Below are positions 4,931 through 17,783 of a stretch of 21,216 bases of DNA, piece after piece. The translations under genes were made by a program, and so were the position numbers. Source of the stretch: Candidatus Rifleibacteriota bacterium (GTDB taxonomy: Bacteria > UBP17 > UBA6191 > JACPRK01); assembly GCA_016213865.1 (NCBI GenBank), contig JACQZL010000079.1, positions 1,258 to 22,473 on the forward strand, read 5' to 3'. How positions within the stretch are numbered: position 1 is the first letter of the stretch; the number at the start of each line of letters is the position of its first letter. The notes beneath the pieces are model-generated. The model was not told where the DNA came from. It saw only the letters and a list, made by a program, of their open reading frames with translations, and did not search any database.

Positions 4931-5004
4931 TGTAGCGCGGGCCCTGGTGGCCCGCCACGGTCGGCGGACCGCCTCCAAAGCGGGGGACAAGCCCCCGCGC
5001 TACA
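4931..5004. repeat. Palindromic dispersed repeat, family R, complete copy
   Basis: This 74-base element is bounded by a perfect 11-base inverted repeat, TGTAGCGCGGG at the left and CCCGCGCTACA at the right. Inside it are GGTCGGCGGACC and a stable hairpin, GCGGGGG-ACAAG-CCCCCGC. Related copies lie at about 14237-14280 and 16503-16594. All three share the segment ending in the CCCCGCGCTAC arm. It has no coding capacity and lies between genes, so it looks like a REP- or MITE-type repeat. It may also work as a terminator for the upstream kelch gene. Confidence 0.75.
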
Positions 5005-5175: not shown

Positions 5176-8100
5176 TCACCACTGGAGCGTCACGGGCAAG
5201 GCGATGTCCAGCAGATAACCGTGGCCGGCTTGCACCGGCGGGGAAGTCGTCTGCCCTGCAACGTGAACCGAGAAGTGGCTTGTCCGGTTCGCACCTTCTC
5301 GAGTCCAGACGACGAAGTCGGCCCCAGCCCGCACTCGCAGGTCCTCCAGCGTCCCGGTCGCAGACTCGCTACTCGGCGGTCCGATGATGGCGTGTCGCGG
5401 CCTCAGCAGTCGCAGCTTGGCTGCCTCGGGCCACGGCCGGCCGACGAGGTCGATCCGGCGGGGCGAGTTGACCAGAACCACGTATCCCAGCTCCCCTTCG
5501 AGTGCGTAGGTCTGGCTCATCGCTGGAAGATACGTGGCAAATCGTTGGGGTCCTCCGGAGTCAGATGCCAAGCTGACCACGGCCACGGCCCCCGTGCGAC
5601 GTGCCAGCTCGGAGACGTCGAACGGTGCCGGCTCAGACCGTATGGCGGCCCCCTCCGTCCGTCCTTCGAGACGCGCTCTTGACACCGAGGAGTGCTTGTC
5701 AGCTTCTGCGGAGCGCTCCTCAGGACGAACGGAGGGGGAAAACGCCGCCATCCAGTCTTGTTGGCGGAGCCCCGCCATAGTAGGACGAACGGAGGGGGAA
5801 AACGCCGCCATCCAGTCTTGTTGGCGGGGTACCGCCATGGTAGGACGAACGGAGGGGGAGGAACCCGCCATCCAGTCTTGTTGGCGGGGGCCCGCCATGG
5901 TTGAAGTGAGTGGTTGAAACGGCAGGGAGACGAGATTGGGGCCGGGCGCCAAGCTCAACTGAACACGGGGGGCCCGGAGCACGGCCAGAGGTGGTGCGAG
6001 CGGCTTCGCATCGCCGATGTCGGCCTCGCTGTTGCCGTCCCTTGCGAAGAGCGTCAGCGTCGCGGTCCGCGGTCCCGGAGAGGCATCGACGCTGACCGAG
6101 CACTGGAAGCTGAACGATTTCGAGCTTCCACCGTCGATGGTGACGGGGGTTTCCTGCGAGGGGCTGACCTGAATTCCGACACCCTCGAAGGTGAGGCCGG
6201 CGGTCGCAGCGTGGGCTGGCGCCTCGCCGGTGTTGGTCACGGTCACGCTGCAACCAAAAGACTGGCCCTGGTACACACCGTCGGGCGCTGCCAGCATCCC
6301 GATAGCCAGGGCGGCCTGGGTCTGAACGGTCCAGTCGTCCGCCGTGTCGGCCGAAGTGTCCGTGGTCTGCGCTCCGCTGTTCGCATCCGTCCCCGAGACC
6401 GCTCCGTTCAGCGCCGTCACCCCCAACCGAGCGCTTGTCCCGACCGTCACCGTGTAACCAAACGTGGCGGTCACCCCGCCGGCAATCGTGCCCGGATTGG
6501 CCCCGGACACGACGGCGTACGCGCCCGTGTCGTCCCCACCGTTGGAGAACGTCAGCCCTGTCGAACCGATGTTCGCACTCGCCTGACCCGTGTTCGTCAC
6601 CACCATCGCGACGGCGAGAGATGCTTGTCCTCGCGAGACCTGCGTCGGCGTCGTCCGCACGCTCACGATCGAGAGCACCGCAGGCGCCTGGACCGTCCAG
6701 GAGTCGGGCTCATCGGCCGAAGTGTCCGTGATCGGCGCTCCGCTGTTCGCATCCGTCCCCGAGACCGTTCCGTTCAGCGCCGTCAGCCCCAATCGGGCGC
6801 TCGTACCGACCGTCACCGCGTAGCCGAACGTGGCGGTCGCCCCGCCGGCAATCGTGCCCGGATTGGCCCCGGATACGACGGCGTACGCGCCCGTGTCGTC
6901 CCCCTCGTTGGAGAACGTCAGCCCTGTCGAACCGACGATCGCCGTCGCCTGGCCCGTGTTCGTCACCACCATCGTGACAGCGATGCCGGTCTGCCCGCGA
7001 CTGACCACGACAGGCAAGGCCGAGACACTCTCGATGGCCAGACGCGCGGGAGTCTGGACCACCCAGGAATCGATCGTGCCGGCACCTGCATCGAAGGTGT
7101 TACCGTTGGCGCCCCTTCCGCTGATGCGTCCATCCATGACGACGGTGCCTGGCGTGGCCGTGGGTGAAATGTCGACCGTGAAGGCGAACGTGGCCAGGTC
7201 ACCGGCGGCCACGGAAGGAGGATTTCCCCCGGATGGAGTGACGGTGTACTCGGCGCCCAGCTCGTCGCCGTTGCCGAAAGTCAGCTCCGCGGTGGTGACC
7301 GTACCCGGCAGGGTCCCGGTGTTTGCCACGGTCATGCTCACGGAAAGCCCACGCTGGCCCTGGCTTGCGTGACCCGCGCCGGCAGTGACAGTGACGATCT
7401 CGAAAGCCGGGAGACCCGGCTCGACCGTCCAGTGATCGAGCGCGTCGCTCCCGGAGTCCCTGGTAGGCTGTCGGCTCACGGCGCCGACGCCCTCGACGAA
7501 CCCGTCGAGGTTCACCGTCGTCGTGGTCGCGGTGGCGGAGACGGCGACCACGAAGGTCAGGGTTGCAGTGGCTCCGGGGGCGACGGAGGTCGGGATAGAG
7601 GGCAAGGCAACTCTGTACTCCGAGATGAGGTCCCTTGCCTCCAGTTCCCAGGTCTCCCCGCTTTCACTGGAGGGGTCTCCTCCGACGGCGCCTCCGAAGA
7701 GCACTGCGCACTTTCGCGTCGGGTCGTAGGCCATCGCGTGGCCGTTGCGCGCCGCCGGCCTGCTGACAGGACTCTGCTCGAGCCAGTCGGTGCCGTCCCA
7801 CACCCACGTATCGTCCAGGCGAACGCCGCTGTATCCGCCAAAGAGTATCATCCGTTCGAGGGCCGAGTTGTAGACCAGGTCGTGAGTCCGACGACCCAGG
7901 GGGCTCCGGGTCGGGTGCTTCCGAAACCAGTCGATTCCATCCCACTCCCAGGTCTCGGCAAAGCCGGTGGTCCCTCCGAATAGCACCACGCGCCGGCGAG
8001 TAGCATCATAAGCCATGGAGTGCTGATACCGCGCCGACGGCCTGGTGGACGTTGCCGCCCGCGCCCATGTCGTACCGTCCCATTCCCACGTGTCATCAAG

Positions 8101-9750
8101 GGAGACGGCACCTATCACCCCGCCGAAGAGTACCACTCGCTGGCGCTCGGCATCATAGGCCATCGCGTGACACGATCGCGCGGGGGGACTGCTGGCAGGG
8201 GTCTTCAGAACCCAGTCGATGCCATTCCACTCCCATGTCTCATCGCCACCGAAGCTGCCACCGAACAGGACTGCTCGCTGACGGGCCGCGTCGTAGGCCA
8301 TGGCATGCATGCTGCGGTCCGAGGGCCGGCTGGTGGGCGTCATCTGCACCCAATCAGTGCCATTCCACTCCCACGTTTCACCAGCGAGGCCGAAGGCGTG
8401 TCCGCCGAACAGCACGGTCCTTCTGCGACTGGCGTCATAGGCCATCGCGTGATAATGACGCGCTGCTGGTGCAGACGTCGGGTACCGCCGAATCCACCGG
8501 AGACTCGTCGCAAGAGTCAGACCAGCAGAGGTGACCGAGGCCGCTTCGTCGCCTGTGTTGGTCACAGTCAGGTCGACGAGCAGACCCCTCTGTCCCTGCC
8601 GCACCGTCTCATGCGAGGTCGCCACGGCACCAATGGAGATGCGGGCCGGGCGGCCCACGGTCCAGGAGTCGGTGGTGTCGGCATCGGAGTCGACTGTGCC
8701 CAGTTGCGTGCCCGAACCGCTGATGCTGCCGCCGACGGTCACGGTGCCCGTGGTAGCGAATGCCGATACTGCGACGGTGAAGGTCAGCCTGACCGTTTCA
8801 CGCGCAGAGATGCTGACCGGGTTGGCCACGTCGGGGGTAGCATCGAATTCGGAGTCGACCGGGACTGCGCGCGCGAAAGTCGGCGTCGCCGAGAGGATCG
8901 TGCCGGAGGTGGTTCCCGAGTTGGACACCGTCATGCTCACTCGAAGGTCGCGTTGCCCCTGGAAGACAAGATCCTCATCTGCGGTCACGGCACCGATACG
9001 AGACACCGGTCCTGGCAAGGTGACCTGCCAGCCATCTGTTGTCTCGCAGCCAGCATCGCTGGTGAGCTGGCTACTCGAAACCCCTGCCCCCACGATGGCT
9101 CCGTCCACCACCACTGCTCCCGTGGTGGCGACGGCCGAGACGCCAACGACGAAACTGAAGGTCGCCGTAGCGCCGGCAGCGACAGACGTAGGGTTGCCGG
9201 GGACAGCGGCCACGGAGTACTCCAAACCCAGGTCGGCCAGACCAAGTTCCCACGTCTCTCCGTTTTCGCCCCCGTCGCTTCCCCCGAACAGGACGGTACA
9301 TCGACGGGCCGAGTCGTAAGCCACCGCATGGCCGTTTCGGGCCGATGGTCTACTCGCGAATCCCCGCTGGGCCCAGACAACACCGTTCCACTCCCACGTG
9401 TCGCTCCTCCTCACGCCGTCGTATCCGCCGAAGAGCAACACTTGCCGCAGAGCAGCGTCGTACGCCAGAGCATGGGTCCACCGAGCCGGGGGGCTCGCCG
9501 CCACGGCGATCCGGAGCCAGTTGGTTCCTGTCCATTCCCAGGTCTCCGCCCCACCGTTCGATCCTCCGAACAGCACCACGCGCCTACGTGCGGCATCGTA
9601 GGCCAGGCAGTGTTGGTAACGCGCGGACGGGCTGGTGGCCGGCGTCCTCTGCTCCCAGTTCGTGCCGTCCCATTCCCACGTGTCGTTGCGAGCGGAGCCA
9701 CTGAGTCCACCGAAGAGCACGACTCGCTGGCGTGTTGAATCGTAAGCCAT
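5176..9750 (-). CDS. Kelch-propeller and CARDB-like secreted protein, main fragment after an in-frame TGA
   Basis: This is a 1524-aa open frame, but ATG 9750 is not a natural start: it lies inside a kelch repeat (MAYDSTRQRVVLFGG) and is in frame with the open frame ending at the TGA at 9763-9765. Blades 3-6 of a first six-bladed propeller fill about residues 1-175, each with the MAYDxxRxRxVLFGG and TWEWDGTNW signature. Two CARDB-like beta domains (VTNTGD motifs) follow to about 410, then a complete second six-blade propeller (about 417-703). More CARDB-like domains run to about 1250, including two near-identical 122-residue repeats. The C-terminal domain starts GPNLVSLPFQP and is split by a translated palindromic repeat (about 1280-1373) with three 20-residue units. 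Kelch propellers bind ligands and CARDB domains mediate surface adhesion or spacing, so an extracellular role is likely. If the TGA is genuine, this part is untranslated or needs readthrough. Confidence 0.8.
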   Translation of the reverse strand: MAYDSTRQRVVLFGGLSGSARNDTWEWDGTNWEQRTPATSPSARYQHCLAYDAARRRVVLFGGSNGGAETWEWTGTNWLRIAVAASPPARWTHALAYDAALRQVLLFGGYDGVRRSDTWEWNGVVWAQRGFASRPSARNGHAVAYDSARRCTVLFGGSDGGENGETWELGLADLGLEYSVAAVPGNPTSVAAGATATFSFVVGVSAVATTGAVVVDGAIVGAGVSSSQLTSDAGCETTDGWQVTLPGPVSRIGAVTADEDLVFQGQRDLRVSMTVSNSGTTSGTILSATPTFARAVPVDSEFDATPDVANPVSISARETVRLTFTVAVSAFATTGTVTVGGSISGSGTQLGTVDSDADTTDSWTVGRPARISIGAVATSHETVRQGQRGLLVDLTVTNTGDEAASVTSAGLTLATSLRWIRRYPTSAPAARHYHAMAYDASRRRTVLFGGHAFGLAGETWEWNGTDWVQMTPTSRPSDRSMHAMAYDAARQRAVLFGGSFGGDETWEWNGIDWVLKTPASSPPARSCHAMAYDAERQRVVLFGGVIGAVSLDDTWEWDGTTWARAATSTRPSARYQHSMAYDATRRRVVLFGGTTGFAETWEWDGIDWFRKHPTRSPLGRRTHDLVYNSALERMILFGGYSGVRLDDTWVWDGTDWLEQSPVSRPAARNGHAMAYDPTRKCAVLFGGAVGGDPSSESGETWELEARDLISEYRVALPSIPTSVAPGATATLTFVVAVSATATTTTVNLDGFVEGVGAVSRQPTRDSGSDALDHWTVEPGLPAFEIVTVTAGAGHASQGQRGLSVSMTVANTGTLPGTVTTAELTFGNGDELGAEYTVTPSGGNPPSVAAGDLATFAFTVDISPTATPGTVVMDGRISGRGANGNTFDAGAGTIDSWVVQTPARLAIESVSALPVVVSRGQTGIAVTMVVTNTGQATAIVGSTGLTFSNEGDDTGAYAVVSGANPGTIAGGATATFGYAVTVGTSARLGLTALNGTVSGTDANSGAPITDTSADEPDSWTVQAPAVLSIVSVRTTPTQVSRGQASLAVAMVVTNTGQASANIGSTGLTFSNGGDDTGAYAVVSGANPGTIAGGVTATFGYTVTVGTSARLGVTALNGAVSGTDANSGAQTTDTSADTADDWTVQTQAALAIGMLAAPDGVYQGQSFGCSVTVTNTGEAPAHAATAGLTFEGVGIQVSPSQETPVTIDGGSSKSFSFQCSVSVDASPGPRTATLTLFARDGNSEADIGDAKPLAPPLAVLRAPRVQLSLAPGPNLVSLPFQPLTSTMAGPRQQDWMAGSSPSVRPTMAVPRQQDWMAAFSPSVRPTMAGLRQQDWMAAFSPSVRPEERSAEADKHSSVSRARLEGRTEGAAIRSEPAPFDVSELARRTGAVAVVSLASDSGGPQRFATYLPAMSQTYALEGELGYVVLVNSPRRIDLVGRPWPEAAKLRLLRPRHAIIGPPSSESATGTLEDLRVRAGADFVVWTREGANRTSHFSVHVAGQTTSPPVQAGHGYLLDIALPVTLQW
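5630..5902. repeat. Palindromic element family E, copy A, inside the kelch coding frame
   Basis: Bases 5630 to about 5790 match 16959 to about 17118 without gaps at close to 90 percent by eye. The element has 16-base inverted arms, CCCCCTCCGTCCGTCC (5649-5664) and GGACGAACGGAGGGGG (5723-5738), differing at one base. Then come three 60-base units (5723-5782, 5783-5842, 5843-5902), each with TGGCGG-N4-CCGCCA. The minus-strand translation stays open through it, and each unit encodes a 20-residue repeat with RQQDWMA and SPSVRP. It lies between NLVSLPFQP and FDVSELARRTG of one domain, so it looks like an insertion that kept the frame. Confidence 0.85.
6310..7041 (-). repeat. Two tandem near-identical 366-bp CARDB-domain repeats
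   Basis: Two adjacent copies within the kelch gene have a period of 366 bases (122 codons). For example, CGACCGTCACCG occurs at 6441 and again at 6807. The encoded stretches GSTGLTFSN, GAYAVVSGANPGTIAGG and VSGTDANSGA recur with few changes, and much of the DNA between is identical. This indicates a recent tandem duplication or gene conversion; the other CARDB-like domains of the protein are far more divergent. Confidence 0.8.
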
Positions 9751-9762
9751 GGAGTGGCCGGT

Positions 9763-9765
9763 TCA
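9763..9765 (-). other. In-frame TGA stop splitting the kelch gene
   Basis: The minus-strand reading is R-P-S-P-stop-T-G-H-S-M-A-Y-D. The kelch pattern continues in the same frame on both sides, with no indel. Equivalent positions in other blades carry arginine (SARYQHSMAYD, PARSCHAMAYD). The matching third blade of the second propeller uses CGA at this place, so a single C-to-T change at a CpG explains the stop. Other genes in the window end with TGA, so a reassigned code is unlikely. Confidence 0.85.
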
Positions 9766-10374
9766 GGGCGAGGGCCTGCTTACGGGGCTCTTCAGCACCC
9801 AGTTAGTGCCGTCCCAAACCCACGTTTCATCTCCACCGTAGCTTCCTCCAAAGAGCACCACCTGACGGCGCGCCGTGTCATAGGCCATAGCGTGCAGGCT
9901 GCGATCGTAGGGCCTGGTCGCCGGTGTTCTCTCGGCCCAGTTGGTCCCATCCCACTCCCACGTTTCGTTGGCCAGGCCGAAGTCATGCCCTCCGAACAGC
10001 ACCGTCCGCCGGCGCTCCGGGTCGTAGGCCATCGCATGGTAGTGGCGCGCGGCGGGAGCCGTGGCAGGGTGCAACTGCGTCCACTGTTGCTGCATCCCGA
10101 AGGTAAGCCCCGCCGTGGTGATCGCTGCCGCCTCGTCGCCCGTGTTCGTCACGGTCATGTGGACGACCAGCCCCGTCTGCCCCTGCTGCACGGTCGTCGG
10201 CGTCGTCGCCACGGCCTCGAGGGAGAGACGGGGACCGGGCTGCGCGGCCAGGGGCCGGGCGGCCACTGCGGCAAGCAGCGCAGCGACGGCAAGCAGCACG
10301 CTCGAAGGCAGAACCGGAGACGTCGAACGCCTGTGAGCGTCCAGCTCACGAGAGAGGCTCAGAACTCCTGACAT
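9763..10374 (-). CDS. N-terminal fragment of the kelch/CARDB secreted protein, signal peptide and two blades
   Basis: This 203-aa frame carries the export signal and first domains of the large kelch protein. From ATG 10374 there is a basic n-region, a hydrophobic core (VLLAVAALLAAVAA, 26-39) and a likely cut after PLAA (A44). A CARDB-like segment follows (VHMTVTNTGDEAAAITTAGL, 71-90), then kelch blades 1 and 2 (RHYHAMAYDPERRRTVLFGG and RSLHAMAYDTARRQVVLFGG). It stops at TGA 9763-9765, five codons before the frame resumes with MAYDSTRQR. A propeller needs all six blades, so this piece alone should not fold normally. ATG 10416 would add 14 residues without improving the signal peptide, and it lies upstream of a weak TATAAG box (minus strand, 10404-10399). 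Neither start has a good ribosome site. Together the two frames form one 1732-codon gene with a single internal stop. Confidence 0.75.
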   Translation of the reverse strand: MSGVLSLSRELDAHRRSTSPVLPSSVLLAVAALLAAVAARPLAAQPGPRLSLEAVATTPTTVQQGQTGLVVHMTVTNTGDEAAAITTAGLTFGMQQQWTQLHPATAPAARHYHAMAYDPERRRTVLFGGHDFGLANETWEWDGTNWAERTPATRPYDRSLHAMAYDTARRQVVLFGGSYGGDETWVWDGTNWVLKSPVSRPSP

Positions 10375-10753
10375 GCCGGTGGCACATGTTGACACGTGCT
10401 TATATCGCGCGCGCATGTGCGCGAATTCGCCCGGGTTCTATGCACTGGTGTGACAGGCCAAATCGCCACCCCCCTCCGTCGGCCTCCAGCGGGAGCCGGC
10501 GAGACTCCCTGCACCACGAGCTGCTGCTCGAGAAGGAGCGGTTCCTCGACTGAGGTGAACGCCCAGTCGTCGTCGCGCGCTCACCGTGCAGACGAGAGAC
10601 TGCCCGCTCGCTGACCTCTCTCTTTCTCCTCTGTGGCCCTGTGCCCTTGTGGCTCTGGGTTTCAATGGCAAACCGCAGTCGCTCCCACCTGCGGGACGGT
10701 ACCCAGAGGTGAAGCGCGGGGTGCGTGAAGGCGCCGGGCGAGCTCCGGATTGC
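10375..10753. other. Gene-free spacer upstream of the kelch gene
   Basis: This gap of about 380 bases lies between the kelch start and the end of the YfhO-like gene, both minus strand. Next to the kelch start is an alternating purine-pyrimidine, palindrome-rich stretch (10385-10428, including GCGCGCATGTGCGC and TATAT) that could hold the promoter, but no good -35/-10 pair was found. Around 10620-10665 a CT/GT-rich stretch (CTCTGTGGCCCTGTGCCC) looks like low-complexity spacer. No gene is supported. Confidence 0.5.
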
Positions 10754-14236: not shown

Positions 14237-14280
14237 GTCAACGGACCGCTCCACAAGCGGGGGACAAGCCCCCGCGCTAC
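14237..14280. repeat. R-family palindromic repeat, right part only
   Basis: The segment from GTCAACGGACCGCTCC to the CCCCGCGCTAC arm matches 4960-5003 closely and keeps the GCGGGGG-ACAAG-CCCCCGC hairpin. The left arm with GTAGCGCGGG is missing, so this is a truncated or diverged copy. Confidence 0.7.
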
Positions 14281-14385: not shown

Positions 14386-15384
14386 ATGTCCCGCTTCCTG
14401 CCGGCCCCCATTTTCCGCGCCGTCCCCGCCTCACGCCGCGGCGGACGCGAGGTGTGCGTCTACTGCAACCGGACGATGGAGCCCAGGCGCGGACTCTGCC
14501 CCCACTGCGGGAAGACGCCGTTCATGCGCGAGTCGAGGGTCGGCCTCCTGGGCCTTTCGGGCGCCTTCTTCGTCTCCAGTCTGGCGCTGCAACCGTGGGC
14601 AGGGCTGCTGTTCGCGCTCTCGGTGCTGTTCCTCTCGGGCGGGCTCTTCCTGATGGCCCGTCAGGAACACCGCATGTCCGAGCAGCGCCTGGTGTTCCTG
14701 CCCCTGGCATTCCTGATGTTCGCCATGATCCCCTGGCTCGCGGGGTCGGCCGTGCCGCTGGTACTGGCGCTTCTGGGCACCGCGTTCACCTACTGCGCCC
14801 TGCCGTCGCTCCACTCTCCGGCCAGCGAGGACCTCTCGCGCAGCATCGAGGAGTTCGAGGCGCACAACCAGTTGACCTACGGCTTCGGCAACATCCGGGA
14901 CCAGATCCGGGCGACCATCTCAGCGTCCGATGGCGCCAAGCAGATGGTCCTGACCCGCGAGCTGATGCCCCGCATCAACCACCTGCTCGACAAGAAGCTG
15001 CTCTCGATCCTCAAGCGCAAGGTGAGTCTCGAACGCATCATGGCCACCACCGATCCGAACCGGCTCGAGGACGACCGCAAACGCGCCCTGGACCGGGCGG
15101 CTCTGGTCAAGAGCGACGCCGTGCGGGGGGAGCTGGCGCGCAGCGCGGCCCTCTCCAAGTCGATGCAGGACAACTACCAGAAGATCGCCGAGTTGCTGAA
15201 CGTCTACAATGTCCAGATTCGCAATCTCCAGAAGGTGCTTCTCAACCTCAACATGAAGATCGCCGCCTCGGCGTTCAACGATGGGGGCCTGGACTCGATC
15301 CGCGAACCCCTGGACGCGCTCGATCAGGAGATGGAAGTCCTGGAGAGAAGCTTCAAGGACTTCGACCTGATGCTGCAAATGTAG
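14386..15384 (+). CDS. Zinc-ribbon, four-helix membrane protein with coiled-coil tail
   Basis: This 332-aa protein is not matched to a named family, but its layout is clear. A zinc ribbon has two CxxC pairs (C24-V-Y-C27 and C38-P-H-C41). Four hydrophobic segments follow at about 52-69, 72-90, 101-119 and 121-138. A long soluble region of about 190 residues has heptad-like helices, especially from about 245 (ARSAALSKSMQDNYQKIAEL) to the end (EVLERSFKDFDLMLQM). Both termini are probably cytoplasmic. Similar zinc-ribbon/transmembrane/coiled-coil proteins often act as scaffolds or in envelope assembly, but that is only an analogy. It lies downstream of the methyltransferase behind its own TATAAT box, so it is probably a separate transcript. 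The stop is TAG. Confidence 0.8.
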   Translation: MSRFLPAPIFRAVPASRRGGREVCVYCNRTMEPRRGLCPHCGKTPFMRESRVGLLGLSGAFFVSSLALQPWAGLLFALSVLFLSGGLFLMARQEHRMSEQRLVFLPLAFLMFAMIPWLAGSAVPLVLALLGTAFTYCALPSLHSPASEDLSRSIEEFEAHNQLTYGFGNIRDQIRATISASDGAKQMVLTRELMPRINHLLDKKLLSILKRKVSLERIMATTDPNRLEDDRKRALDRAALVKSDAVRGELARSAALSKSMQDNYQKIAELLNVYNVQIRNLQKVLLNLNMKIAASAFNDGGLDSIREPLDALDQEMEVLERSFKDFDLMLQM

Positions 15385-16506: not shown

Positions 16507-16594
16507 GGGGCTTGGTGGCCCGGCAGGCTGGCAGATCCGTTCCAGAAGCGGGGGACAAGCATGCCCTGAGCCTGTCGAAGGGCCCCCGCGCTAC
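16503..16594. repeat. R-family palindromic repeat split by a second short repeat
   Basis: This copy begins at the radical SAM stop region (GTAGGGGGCTTGGTGGCCCG) and ends with CCCCGCGCTAC. It matches the copy at 4931-5004, but the GCGGGGGACAAGC hairpin arm is followed by about 22 extra bases (16561-16582, ATGCCCTGAGCCTGTCGAAG and two more) before the right arm. The extra piece is a motif widely seen as a dispersed repeat in bacterial genomes (TTCGACAGGCTCAGGGC in reverse). Confidence 0.7.
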
Positions 16595-16629
16595 CGTCCG
16601 TGAAGCGCAGGTCCCGTGAATTCCATGGA

Positions 16630-16654
16630 TGCCTGAGGAGGAACGCCTCAGGCA
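16630..16654. repeat. Perfect 9-bp-stem hairpin
   Basis: TGCCTGAGG pairs with CCTCAGGCA across a 7-base loop. No T-run follows on the plus strand, so a standard intrinsic terminator is not clear, although it lies 124 bases after the radical SAM gene. Confidence 0.55.
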
Positions 16655-16847
16655 CGCACTTCTGCCATTCAGTTCCGATACGAGGCTAACTGAGAGAGAG
16701 AGAACAGGGATGTGGAGACTGGAGATTTCGAATCCGGTCGGCAGCTCGTCGCCCAGTCCCCGGTCTTGGGTGCCGGGTAACGCCCGGGGGGAGCGACGCC
16801 AACTCGACGCCAACTCCTGGGGAGATCAGGATCCGTTCGTGCTGAGC

Positions 16848-16871
16848 CGGAGGCTCGTTTACGAGCCTCCG
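16848..16871. repeat. Perfect 10-bp-stem hairpin with TTTA loop
   Basis: CGGAGGCTCG pairs with CGAGCCTCCG across a four-base TTTA loop. It is a very stable hairpin with no following T-run, in gene-free DNA. Confidence 0.6.
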
Positions 16872-16958
16872 AGTCGAAGCACGGCTTGCAGAGCCAGTTC
16901 TCCCGCCCCCCTTCGACATGCTCAGGACATGCCCTCGACGCGCCCCGCTACGCTCGGC

Positions 16959-17125
16959 GGCTCAGACCGTATAGCGGCCCCCTCCGTCCGTCCTTCGAGA
17001 CGCGCTCCTGACACTGAGGAGCTCTGGTTGGCTCCTGCGGCGCGCTACTCCGGACGAACGGAGGGGGAAAACTCAGCCATCCAGTCTTGTTGGCGGGGCC
17101 CCGCCATAGTAGGGCGAACGGAACG
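16959..17125. repeat. Palindromic element family E, copy B, intergenic
   Basis: This copy matches 5630 to about 5790 with no gaps and about 15 differences by eye. Its arms are CCCCCTCCGTCCGTCC (16978-16993) and GGACGAACGGAGGGGG (17052-17067). The hairpin at 17091-17106 is here a perfect 16-base palindrome (TGGCGGGGCCCCGCCA). It has one full 60-base unit and a decayed start of a second, against three units in the coding copy. Confidence 0.85.
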
Positions 17126-17264
17126 AGAGAAGGCAGCTTCCCATTTCCCCGCGTCGCTCCCCCCCCGGGTTGGGATGCAACCTCCTGCCACCCTCGATGG
17201 TAGTATGGGTCAAAGACAGGCGTTCTGCCGTACCTTGCCCTTGCTTTCGAAGGAGGCCGTTCCC

Positions 17265-17783
17265 GTGAACCGAGCTTGCATCCTGCTCCTCATCTGCCTG
17301 GTGGCCACTCTTGCTACGGCTTGCTCCAAGCCCCCCCCGGCGCCCATGGGTTTCCAGAACCGCGCCCAGTTCGAGGAGTACGTGGACAGCATCACCATGC
17401 CGGATGCGTGGAAGGAAGCTGTCAAGTCGGAGACGCAGCAGGTCTCGGGCAAGTACATCAACAACATGGCCCGCTACCTCAAGCTGCAGGGCGAGCCGGT
17501 CATGGCCCTCTGCAAGAAGTACGGCATGAAGGCCGAGATCGGCTTCGAAGGGGTCGACCCGACGCCCGCCATCCAGCAGGCCGTCCGCGACCTGATCACC
17601 GCCGGCGACAAGCAGAACATCTACAAGAACGACCGCTGGAAGGACACGGAAGAGCTCAACGGCGTTTGGGAAGAAGGCCGCAACAGCTTCCAGCAAGCCG
17701 CTGAGTTCGCCCGCCAGAACCGCGGCGACCGCAAGTCGTCGGTGGCCAGCCAGCCCGACTTCGGCGACGTCAAGGACCGCTGA
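17265..17783 (+). CDS. Small lipoprotein of unknown function
   Basis: This 172-aa protein has a type II signal peptide: one arginine at position 3, a hydrophobic core ILLLICLVATLATA, and a lipobox ATAC with the lipidated cysteine at 20. Ser21 suggests the outer membrane. The mature part is helical and polar, with EEYVDSITMPDAWKEAV, GKYINNMARYLKLQGEP and a central VDPTPAIQQAVRDLITAG, ending in a charged QNRGDRKSSV tail. It is not recognised as a known family. The GTG start is supported by a perfect AAGGAGG 8 bases upstream, identical in design to the start of the small secreted protein at 3442. A weak TAGTAT box is at 17201. It stands alone between a repeat-rich spacer and a terminator-like hairpin. 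Confidence 0.82.
   Translation: MNRACILLLICLVATLATACSKPPPAPMGFQNRAQFEEYVDSITMPDAWKEAVKSETQQVSGKYINNMARYLKLQGEPVMALCKKYGMKAEIGFEGVDPTPAIQQAVRDLITAGDKQNIYKNDRWKDTEELNGVWEEGRNSFQQAAEFARQNRGDRKSSVASQPDFGDVKDR

What the first reader, a model, noticed from the sequence alone, without database searches (positions are those of the whole stretch)
5630..5902. A dispersed palindromic element inserted in frame and translated inside a giant kelch gene
About 160 bp of the kelch gene matches an intergenic stretch (16959-17125) at close to 90 percent without gaps. In the gene, its 60-bp module is present three times and every unit stays open, adding three 20-residue repeats (RQQDWMA...SPSVRP) in the middle of a C-terminal domain. 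Rickettsia palindromic elements are a known case of palindromic repeats that insert into genes and are translated. This looks like an unrelated, undescribed family with the same behaviour.
Basis: partly seen in the sequence, partly recalled or inferred. Interest (0 to 1): 0.82.

Follow-up and report, generated by a model that had tools for sequence, protein, structure and literature searches.

The report
Translated palindromic repeat in kelch gene
A small palindromic DNA repeat, normally found between genes, sits in frame inside a large kelch-repeat gene of an uncultured bacterium (Candidatus Wallbacteria), where it would add a floppy loop of about 91 amino acids; this is a new example of a behaviour already known from Rickettsia and several other bacteria.

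Summary
Window 5629-5808 matches 16958-17137 at 88% over 180 bp without gaps. In the kelch ORF (5176-9750, minus) a hairpin is followed by three in-frame 60-bp units, about 91 residues in all. The lineage is Candidatus Wallbacteria; the host genome is not held. All 30 aligned homologues of the C-terminal domain (30 of 62 matches) lack the insert, so it is an insertion into a loop, not an ancestral domain. Two more copies of the unit, both exactly 60 bp and apparently intergenic, occur in one relative (G031). One is joined to a dispersed palindrome found 13-88 times in each of four relatives, which is almost never inside a coding frame: 1 of 82 testable clusters, a recQ linker, against 37-47% of random positions. 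Keeping frame needs little luck: the unit is natively 60 bp, and its lack of stops is mostly what its composition gives. The gene has an in-frame TGA upstream of the insert, so translation is uncertain. In-frame REP/RPE insertions are already published in many bacteria. Verdict: new member of a known kind.

The parts
5629..5902 (.). palindromic element inserted in the kelch ORF: hairpin plus three tandem 60-bp units
   Evidence: absent from 30 of 30 aligned homologues
5649..5664 (.). left hairpin arm CCCCCTCCGTCCGTCC
   Evidence: same place by the constant offset of 11329 from the arm
5723..5738 (.). right hairpin arm GGACGAACGGAGGGGG, also the start of unit 1
5723..5782 (-). 60-bp unit 1, read in the kelch frame as 20 residues
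5783..5842 (-). 60-bp unit 2
5843..5902 (-). 60-bp unit 3
5176..9750 (-). kelch ORF (1524 aa) carrying the insert at about residues 1283-1374
9763..10416 (-). upstream 217-aa ORF with kelch matches in the same frame, ended by TGA 9763-9765 (Pfam matches below the curated cut-off)
5176..5631 (-). part of the C-terminal domain downstream of the insert (starts APFDVSEL), conserved in paralogues
5903..5967 (-). stretch upstream of the insert with two predicted beta strands (PNLVSLPFQPLTS region), conserved in paralogues
16958..17137 (.). second, intergenic copy with a single 60-bp unit at 17052-17111
   Evidence: coding test negative under three codon models

Best explanation
A REP/MITE-like composite palindromic element (hairpin with arms CCCCCTCCGTCCGTCC / GGACGAACGGAGGGGG, plus a 60-bp hairpin-bearing unit) lives mainly between genes in this Wallbacteria lineage. 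One copy landed in a surface loop of the C-terminal domain of a kelch protein gene, in a phase that kept the frame. A single-unit copy ends with an imperfect repeat of the start of its unit (GGACGAACGGA-like, 60 bp apart), so unequal recombination or slippage can give tandem units. Because the unit is natively 60 bp and GC-rich, changes in unit number keep the frame and seldom bring a stop. The encoded peptide of about 91 residues would be a mostly disordered loop, tolerated rather than useful. Shown: dispersal, absence from homologues, fixed unit length, open frame. Inferred: movement in trans by an unidentified enzyme, the tandem mechanism, translation, neutrality.
For: 88% identity over 180 bp to an intergenic copy. 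30 of 30 aligned homologues lack the insert, which sits in a variable loop; one of them, L247, has a weak kelch match upstream (E 6.4e-5, 22.8 bits, under the cut-off of 50). Two unit copies in G031, both 60 bp, both negative in the coding test and lying between genes with Pfam domains. Related palindrome at 43, 51, 88 and 13 sites in G001, G002, G015, G031, reversed-pattern control 0 in all four. Second in-frame case of that palindrome in the recQ linker of G001, also in G002, absent from the G031 recQ. AlphaFold: flanks mostly above 90 pLDDT, insert blocks 41-63. 10 of 21 differences from the intergenic copy are synonymous in the kelch frame, 6.0 expected, P 0.05.
Against: The in-frame TGA upstream allows the reading that the gene is decaying. 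The 23-base core of the widespread palindrome does not match the kelch or intergenic hairpin even at 7 mismatches, because their loop is much longer; the link rests on the arms and on the G031:C459 copy. No mobilising gene found: 0 of 9 Y1_Tnp loci carry the core in their fetched flanks, and G015, richest in the core, has no Y1_Tnp match at E <= 1e-3. The three units differ from each other (4, 7, 8 of 60) about as much as from the intergenic unit (3, 5, 8), so no recent amplification shows. The unit's openness is not clearly beyond its composition. The intergenic and G031 copies fold only weakly better than shuffles. Host genome not held. The kelch site passes the coding test with two of three codon models.
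Confidence: 0.8

Rival explanations
1. The kelch gene is a pseudogene or a decaying gene, and the element inserted with no need to keep the frame; the open frame is chance. (Not exclusive of the best explanation as to what the element is.)
For: In-frame TGA at 9763-9765. 3 of 6 frames are open across the insert and shuffled units are also often open. About 1 in 3 insert lengths keep frame.
Against: No other stop in the 1524 codons. The domain downstream of the insert still matches paralogues at 25-41%. Slight excess of synonymous differences, P 0.05. The TGA may be recent or a sequencing error.
Confidence: 0.3
2. The 20-residue repeats are a selected protein feature (a spacer or binding module), not a tolerated insertion.
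For: Synonymous excess, P 0.05. All three units stay open. The recQ case also lies in an inter-domain linker.
Against: Absent from 30 of 30 aligned homologues. Predicted mostly disordered. No relative of the peptide at E <= 10 among 592 candidates, which by the tool's length rule are proteins of about 156-497 aa.
Confidence: 0.1
3. The repeat arose within the kelch gene and the intergenic copy is a displaced gene fragment.
For: The two copies lie in one 21-kb window.
Against: Unit copies in G031 lie beside methyltransferase, EcsC and protein kinase genes, not kelch genes. The domain lacks the insert in 30 of 30 aligned homologues.
Confidence: 0.03

Closest known systems
REP elements inside genes (GTAG- and CGTC-tagged), Di Nocera et al. 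2013, PMC3733652
   Same: short dispersed palindromes, mostly intergenic, some in frame in genes, many of these for DNA synthesis and repair; clusters encode 43 to 82 aa in Thauera and R. conorii (section 15 read; passages)
   Different: no unpaired GTAG or CGTC tag recognised by eye; larger composite with a 60-bp unit; a phylum not among those named in the passages seen
Rickettsia palindromic elements (RPE), as described in PMC2229807
   Same: 105-146 bp hairpins, intergenic and in frame in protein genes (passages)
   Different: different host phylum; no RPE sequence was compared here; only one coding copy of the composite is known here
MITEs with open frames (ERIC, YPAL/RU-2, the 107-bp Correia/NEMIS form), review PMC2229807
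   Same: small repeats with open frames found fused in frame to genes (passages)
   Different: no target-site duplication or TA termini were established here
PARCEL, PMC2996958
   Same: DNA with dyad symmetry coding for tandem peptide repeats (abstract)
   Different: 25-residue amphipathic units; here 20 residues, predicted mostly disordered, and three of four loci non-coding

Membership tests
REP elements | palindromic, dispersed, mostly intergenic | tested here: met
   for the related 23-base palindrome: 111 sites in 85 clusters, 1 of 82 testable in a coding frame; for the composite only 4 loci are known
REP elements | 20-40 bp size | tested here: inconclusive
   the 23-base core fits; the composite in the window is about 180 bp or more
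GTAG/CGTC REPs | unpaired GTAG or CGTC tag at one end | tested here: inconclusive
   by eye: CGTC lies inside the paired arm; GTAG occurs in some window units but not in the G031 units; the paper's consensus figures were not seen
RAYT-mobilised REPs | repeats flank a Y1 transposase gene | tested here: not met
   0 of 9 PF01797 loci in G001, G002, G031 have the core at <=6 mismatches within the fetched flanks of up to 1.5 kb; the host genome could not be tested
Rickettsia palindromic elements | palindrome inserted in frame in protein genes | tested here: met
   composite in kelch; related palindrome in the recQ linker
Rickettsia palindromic elements | sequence homology to an RPE type | not tested
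   no RPE sequence fetched
MITE | target-site duplication and a parent transposase | tested here: inconclusive
   no clear duplication seen by eye at 5629/5902; no orthologous empty site at DNA level held

The most novel reading that the evidence does not exclude
A distinct composite palindromic family of the Wallbacteria whose fixed 60-bp unit lets it grow and shrink in tandem inside genes without breaking the frame, so that it repeatedly supplies disordered loops and linkers to proteins. (Odds lowered from 0.2 to 0.15 after one search showed that the unit's freedom from stops is mostly what its composition gives.)
Probability: 0.15. Interest if true: 0.55.

Novelty: new member of a known kind. 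Interest (0 to 1): 0.33.

Why it matters
It adds a case from an uncultured phylum to the bacteria whose palindromic repeats are found in protein genes, with homologues that lack the insert and a simple account of why the frame survives (unit length a multiple of three, GC-rich and therefore few stops). The strong avoidance of coding frames by the related palindrome (1 of 82 clusters) suggests that such insertions are usually removed.

Tried and rejected
Exact 19-mer of the unit: 0 hits in genome contigs and viral contigs. Distant blastn of the insert against plasmids and phages: none at E 1e-5. Protein search with the kelch C-terminus: only itself, among the 7988 candidates sharing most words; with the insert peptide: none at E <= 10 among 592 candidates. 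Rfam: no match at gathering scores in the window. Core palindrome: no match in phages, no exact 27-mer in viral contigs. A GTAGCGCGGG match beside a Y1 transposase in L144 was rejected because it lies in an ORF of 403 aa. Paper searches used: 44, 45, 46, 80, 81, 87, 92. Core strings: 0 papers; 2 papers judged unrelated from title and start of abstract. Sequences shown only in figures or supplements would be missed. PMC12306157 was seen as outline and abstract only and not used.

Limits of the counts. 30 of 62 homologue matches were aligned; the other 32 were seen only as table rows; AlphaFold used the window and 27 of those 30. The palindrome survey used 3 of the 4 genomes that had been picked because they had matches (4 of 39 at E <= 0.01); 111 sites were recovered in the fetched regions, against 144 counted for those three genomes, and none of the 51 of G002 was in the survey. 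3 of 85 clusters were dropped as too close to a contig end; one of them (L220) had passed a laxer test. The coding test misses elements near gene ends, and the G031 codon model rests on 25 ORFs. The G032 recQ match ends before the linker and says nothing. An earlier comparison of unit openness with a mean of 1.6 was for hairpin plus units together and was replaced.

Full report
The window has 66.5% GC; the longest contig listed for its own proteins is 22,473 bp. No whole genome is held for it. A neighbouring protein (14386-15384) is 66-72% identical to its six relatives, two of them named Candidatus Wallbacteria; the search for related loci with their alignment gave two Wallbacteria genomes at 69% and 68%. 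These became G001 and G002, and 39 genomes of their phylum were searched.

Observation. The insert at 5629-5902 and the intergenic copy at 16958-17137 share 180 bp at 88% without gaps, and the 60-bp unit occurs three times in the kelch ORF and once in the intergenic copy. The arms CCCCCTCCGTCCGTCC / GGACGAACGGAGGGGG are 94% complementary in the intergenic copy. The hairpin with the first unit folds better than all 200 shuffles as DNA, z -5.4, and the whole insert as RNA, z -5.9. The intergenic copy gives z -2.0 with 9 of 200 shuffles as good, and the G031:C459 copy z -1.1 with 31 of 200. The intergenic copy lies upstream of a GTG at 17265 preceded by AAGGAGG and followed by a lipoprotein-like start (by eye); a longer ORF (16629-17783) reads through it, but the coding test is negative under three codon models.

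Is it an insertion? The C-terminal domain has 62 matches at E <= 0.001 in 3 of 39 genomes. Thirty loci were returned and aligned: 30 of 30 lack the insert, and the gap falls within a few residues of the same place, between ...QPLTST and PAPFDVSEL. One of them, G031:C295 (L247), has the intermediate domain type too (by eye) and a weak kelch match upstream, E 6.4e-5 and 22.8 bits, under Pfam's cut-off of 50; so a kelch homologue without the insert is likely but not secure. AlphaFold on 28 sequences gives about 90 or more for most of the domain and 41-63 for the insert blocks, with two short helices at low confidence.

Are there further copies of the unit? Blast over 39 genomes found one strong match, G031:C459, E 4.8e-12. 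A covariance model of the unit found this one and a second, G031:C515, 53 bits; the other 8 matches were at E 0.099 or worse. Both are exactly 60 bp. Both are negative in the coding test under three models. C459 lies between a methyltransferase and an EcsC-family gene, C515 between a protein kinase gene and an ORF with CHASE2 and kinase matches whose true start is unsure. So the 60-bp length is a property of the element, not a product of selection for frame in the kelch gene. In that search at most 140 candidates per genome were scored.

The wider family. In the G031:C459 copy the unit follows CTTCGACAAGCTCAGGACGAACCG. A 23-base core of this with up to 3 mismatches occurs 43, 51, 88 and 13 times in G001, G002, G015 and G031, and the reversed pattern 0 times in all four; these four were chosen because they matched. 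A 33-base form matches 8 plasmid records of Comamonas, Sphingobium, Novosphingobium, Methylobacter and Phyllobacterium at 91-100% and no phage. The kelch and intergenic hairpins share the arm GGACGAAC and the loop ends TTCGA...CTC (and by eye), but their loop is far longer, and the core does not match them even at 7 mismatches; three other places in the window match at 6-7, against 0.4 expected from shuffles. So the window element is linked to the widespread palindrome through the G031 copy; common descent is inferred.

Coding or not. From G015, G001 and G031, 80 regions were fetched, holding 111 core sites in 85 clusters. A test for an open frame with coding-like codon use on both sides was positive for 1 of 82 testable clusters (0 of 42, 1 of 31, 0 of 9), against 444 of 1200, 371 of 900 and 142 of 300 random positions. 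The one is in the linker between the zinc-binding and HRDC domains of recQ in G001. G002 has it too, though its copy is not fully readable and is not used as evidence on frame; the G031 recQ lacks it. The kelch site passes the same test with the G015 and G001 models and fails with the G031 model.

Why the frame survives. Three of six frames are open across the insert. The six units, each repeated three times, are open in 5, 5, 6, 4, 6 and 5 of 6 frames. Shuffles of the same units give means of 3.3 to 4.2, and 5% to 42% of shuffles are at least as open. The freedom from stops is thus mostly what GC-rich composition and a unit length divisible by three give, and needs no selection. Between the kelch and intergenic copies 10 of 21 differences are synonymous in the kelch frame, 6.0 expected, P 0.05: a hint at most. 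Against translation stands the in-frame TGA at 9763-9765, which parts the ORF from its 217-residue N-terminal piece. Units differ among themselves (4, 7, 8 of 60) about as much as from the intergenic unit (3, 5, 8), so the array is not freshly amplified.

Mobility. Y1 transposase genes (PF01797) occur in G001 (2), G002 (5) and G031 (2), with none at E <= 1e-3 in G015. None of the nine loci has the core in its fetched flanks. This resembles CGTC REPs, which are reported to lack a dedicated transposase (PMC3733652, passages).

Prior art. REPs in genes, more than half of the inserts being dimers or groups that encode 20 to 30 residues, clusters encoding 43 to 82 residues, and many hosts among DNA synthesis and repair genes are described in PMC3733652 (section 15). 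In-frame fusion of RPE, ERIC, YPAL and NEMIS is reviewed in PMC2229807 (passages). The sequence family here may be undescribed (core strings were searched without a paper on it), but its behaviour is known.

Noticed in passing
window 9763-9765: In-frame TGA splits the kelch gene into a 217-aa and a 1524-aa ORF in the same frame; a nonsense mutation or a sequencing error.
   Followed up: partly
window 4931-5004, 14237-14280, 16507-16596: Another dispersed palindrome (AAGCGGGGGACAAGCCCCCGCGCTAC); at about 16549-16596 a GCCCTGAGCCTGTCGAAGGG palindrome sits inside it, giving an occupied and empty pair within the window.
   Followed up: partly
L194:725-747: Core palindrome in frame in the linker of recQ (SFDKLRMSGG) in G001, also present in G002.
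   Followed up: yes
L144:1150-1200 and 1945-1997: A Y1 transposase gene in G001 flanked on both sides by a hairpin with CCGGGGACACACGACCTATTTT, unrelated to the finding.
   Followed up: no
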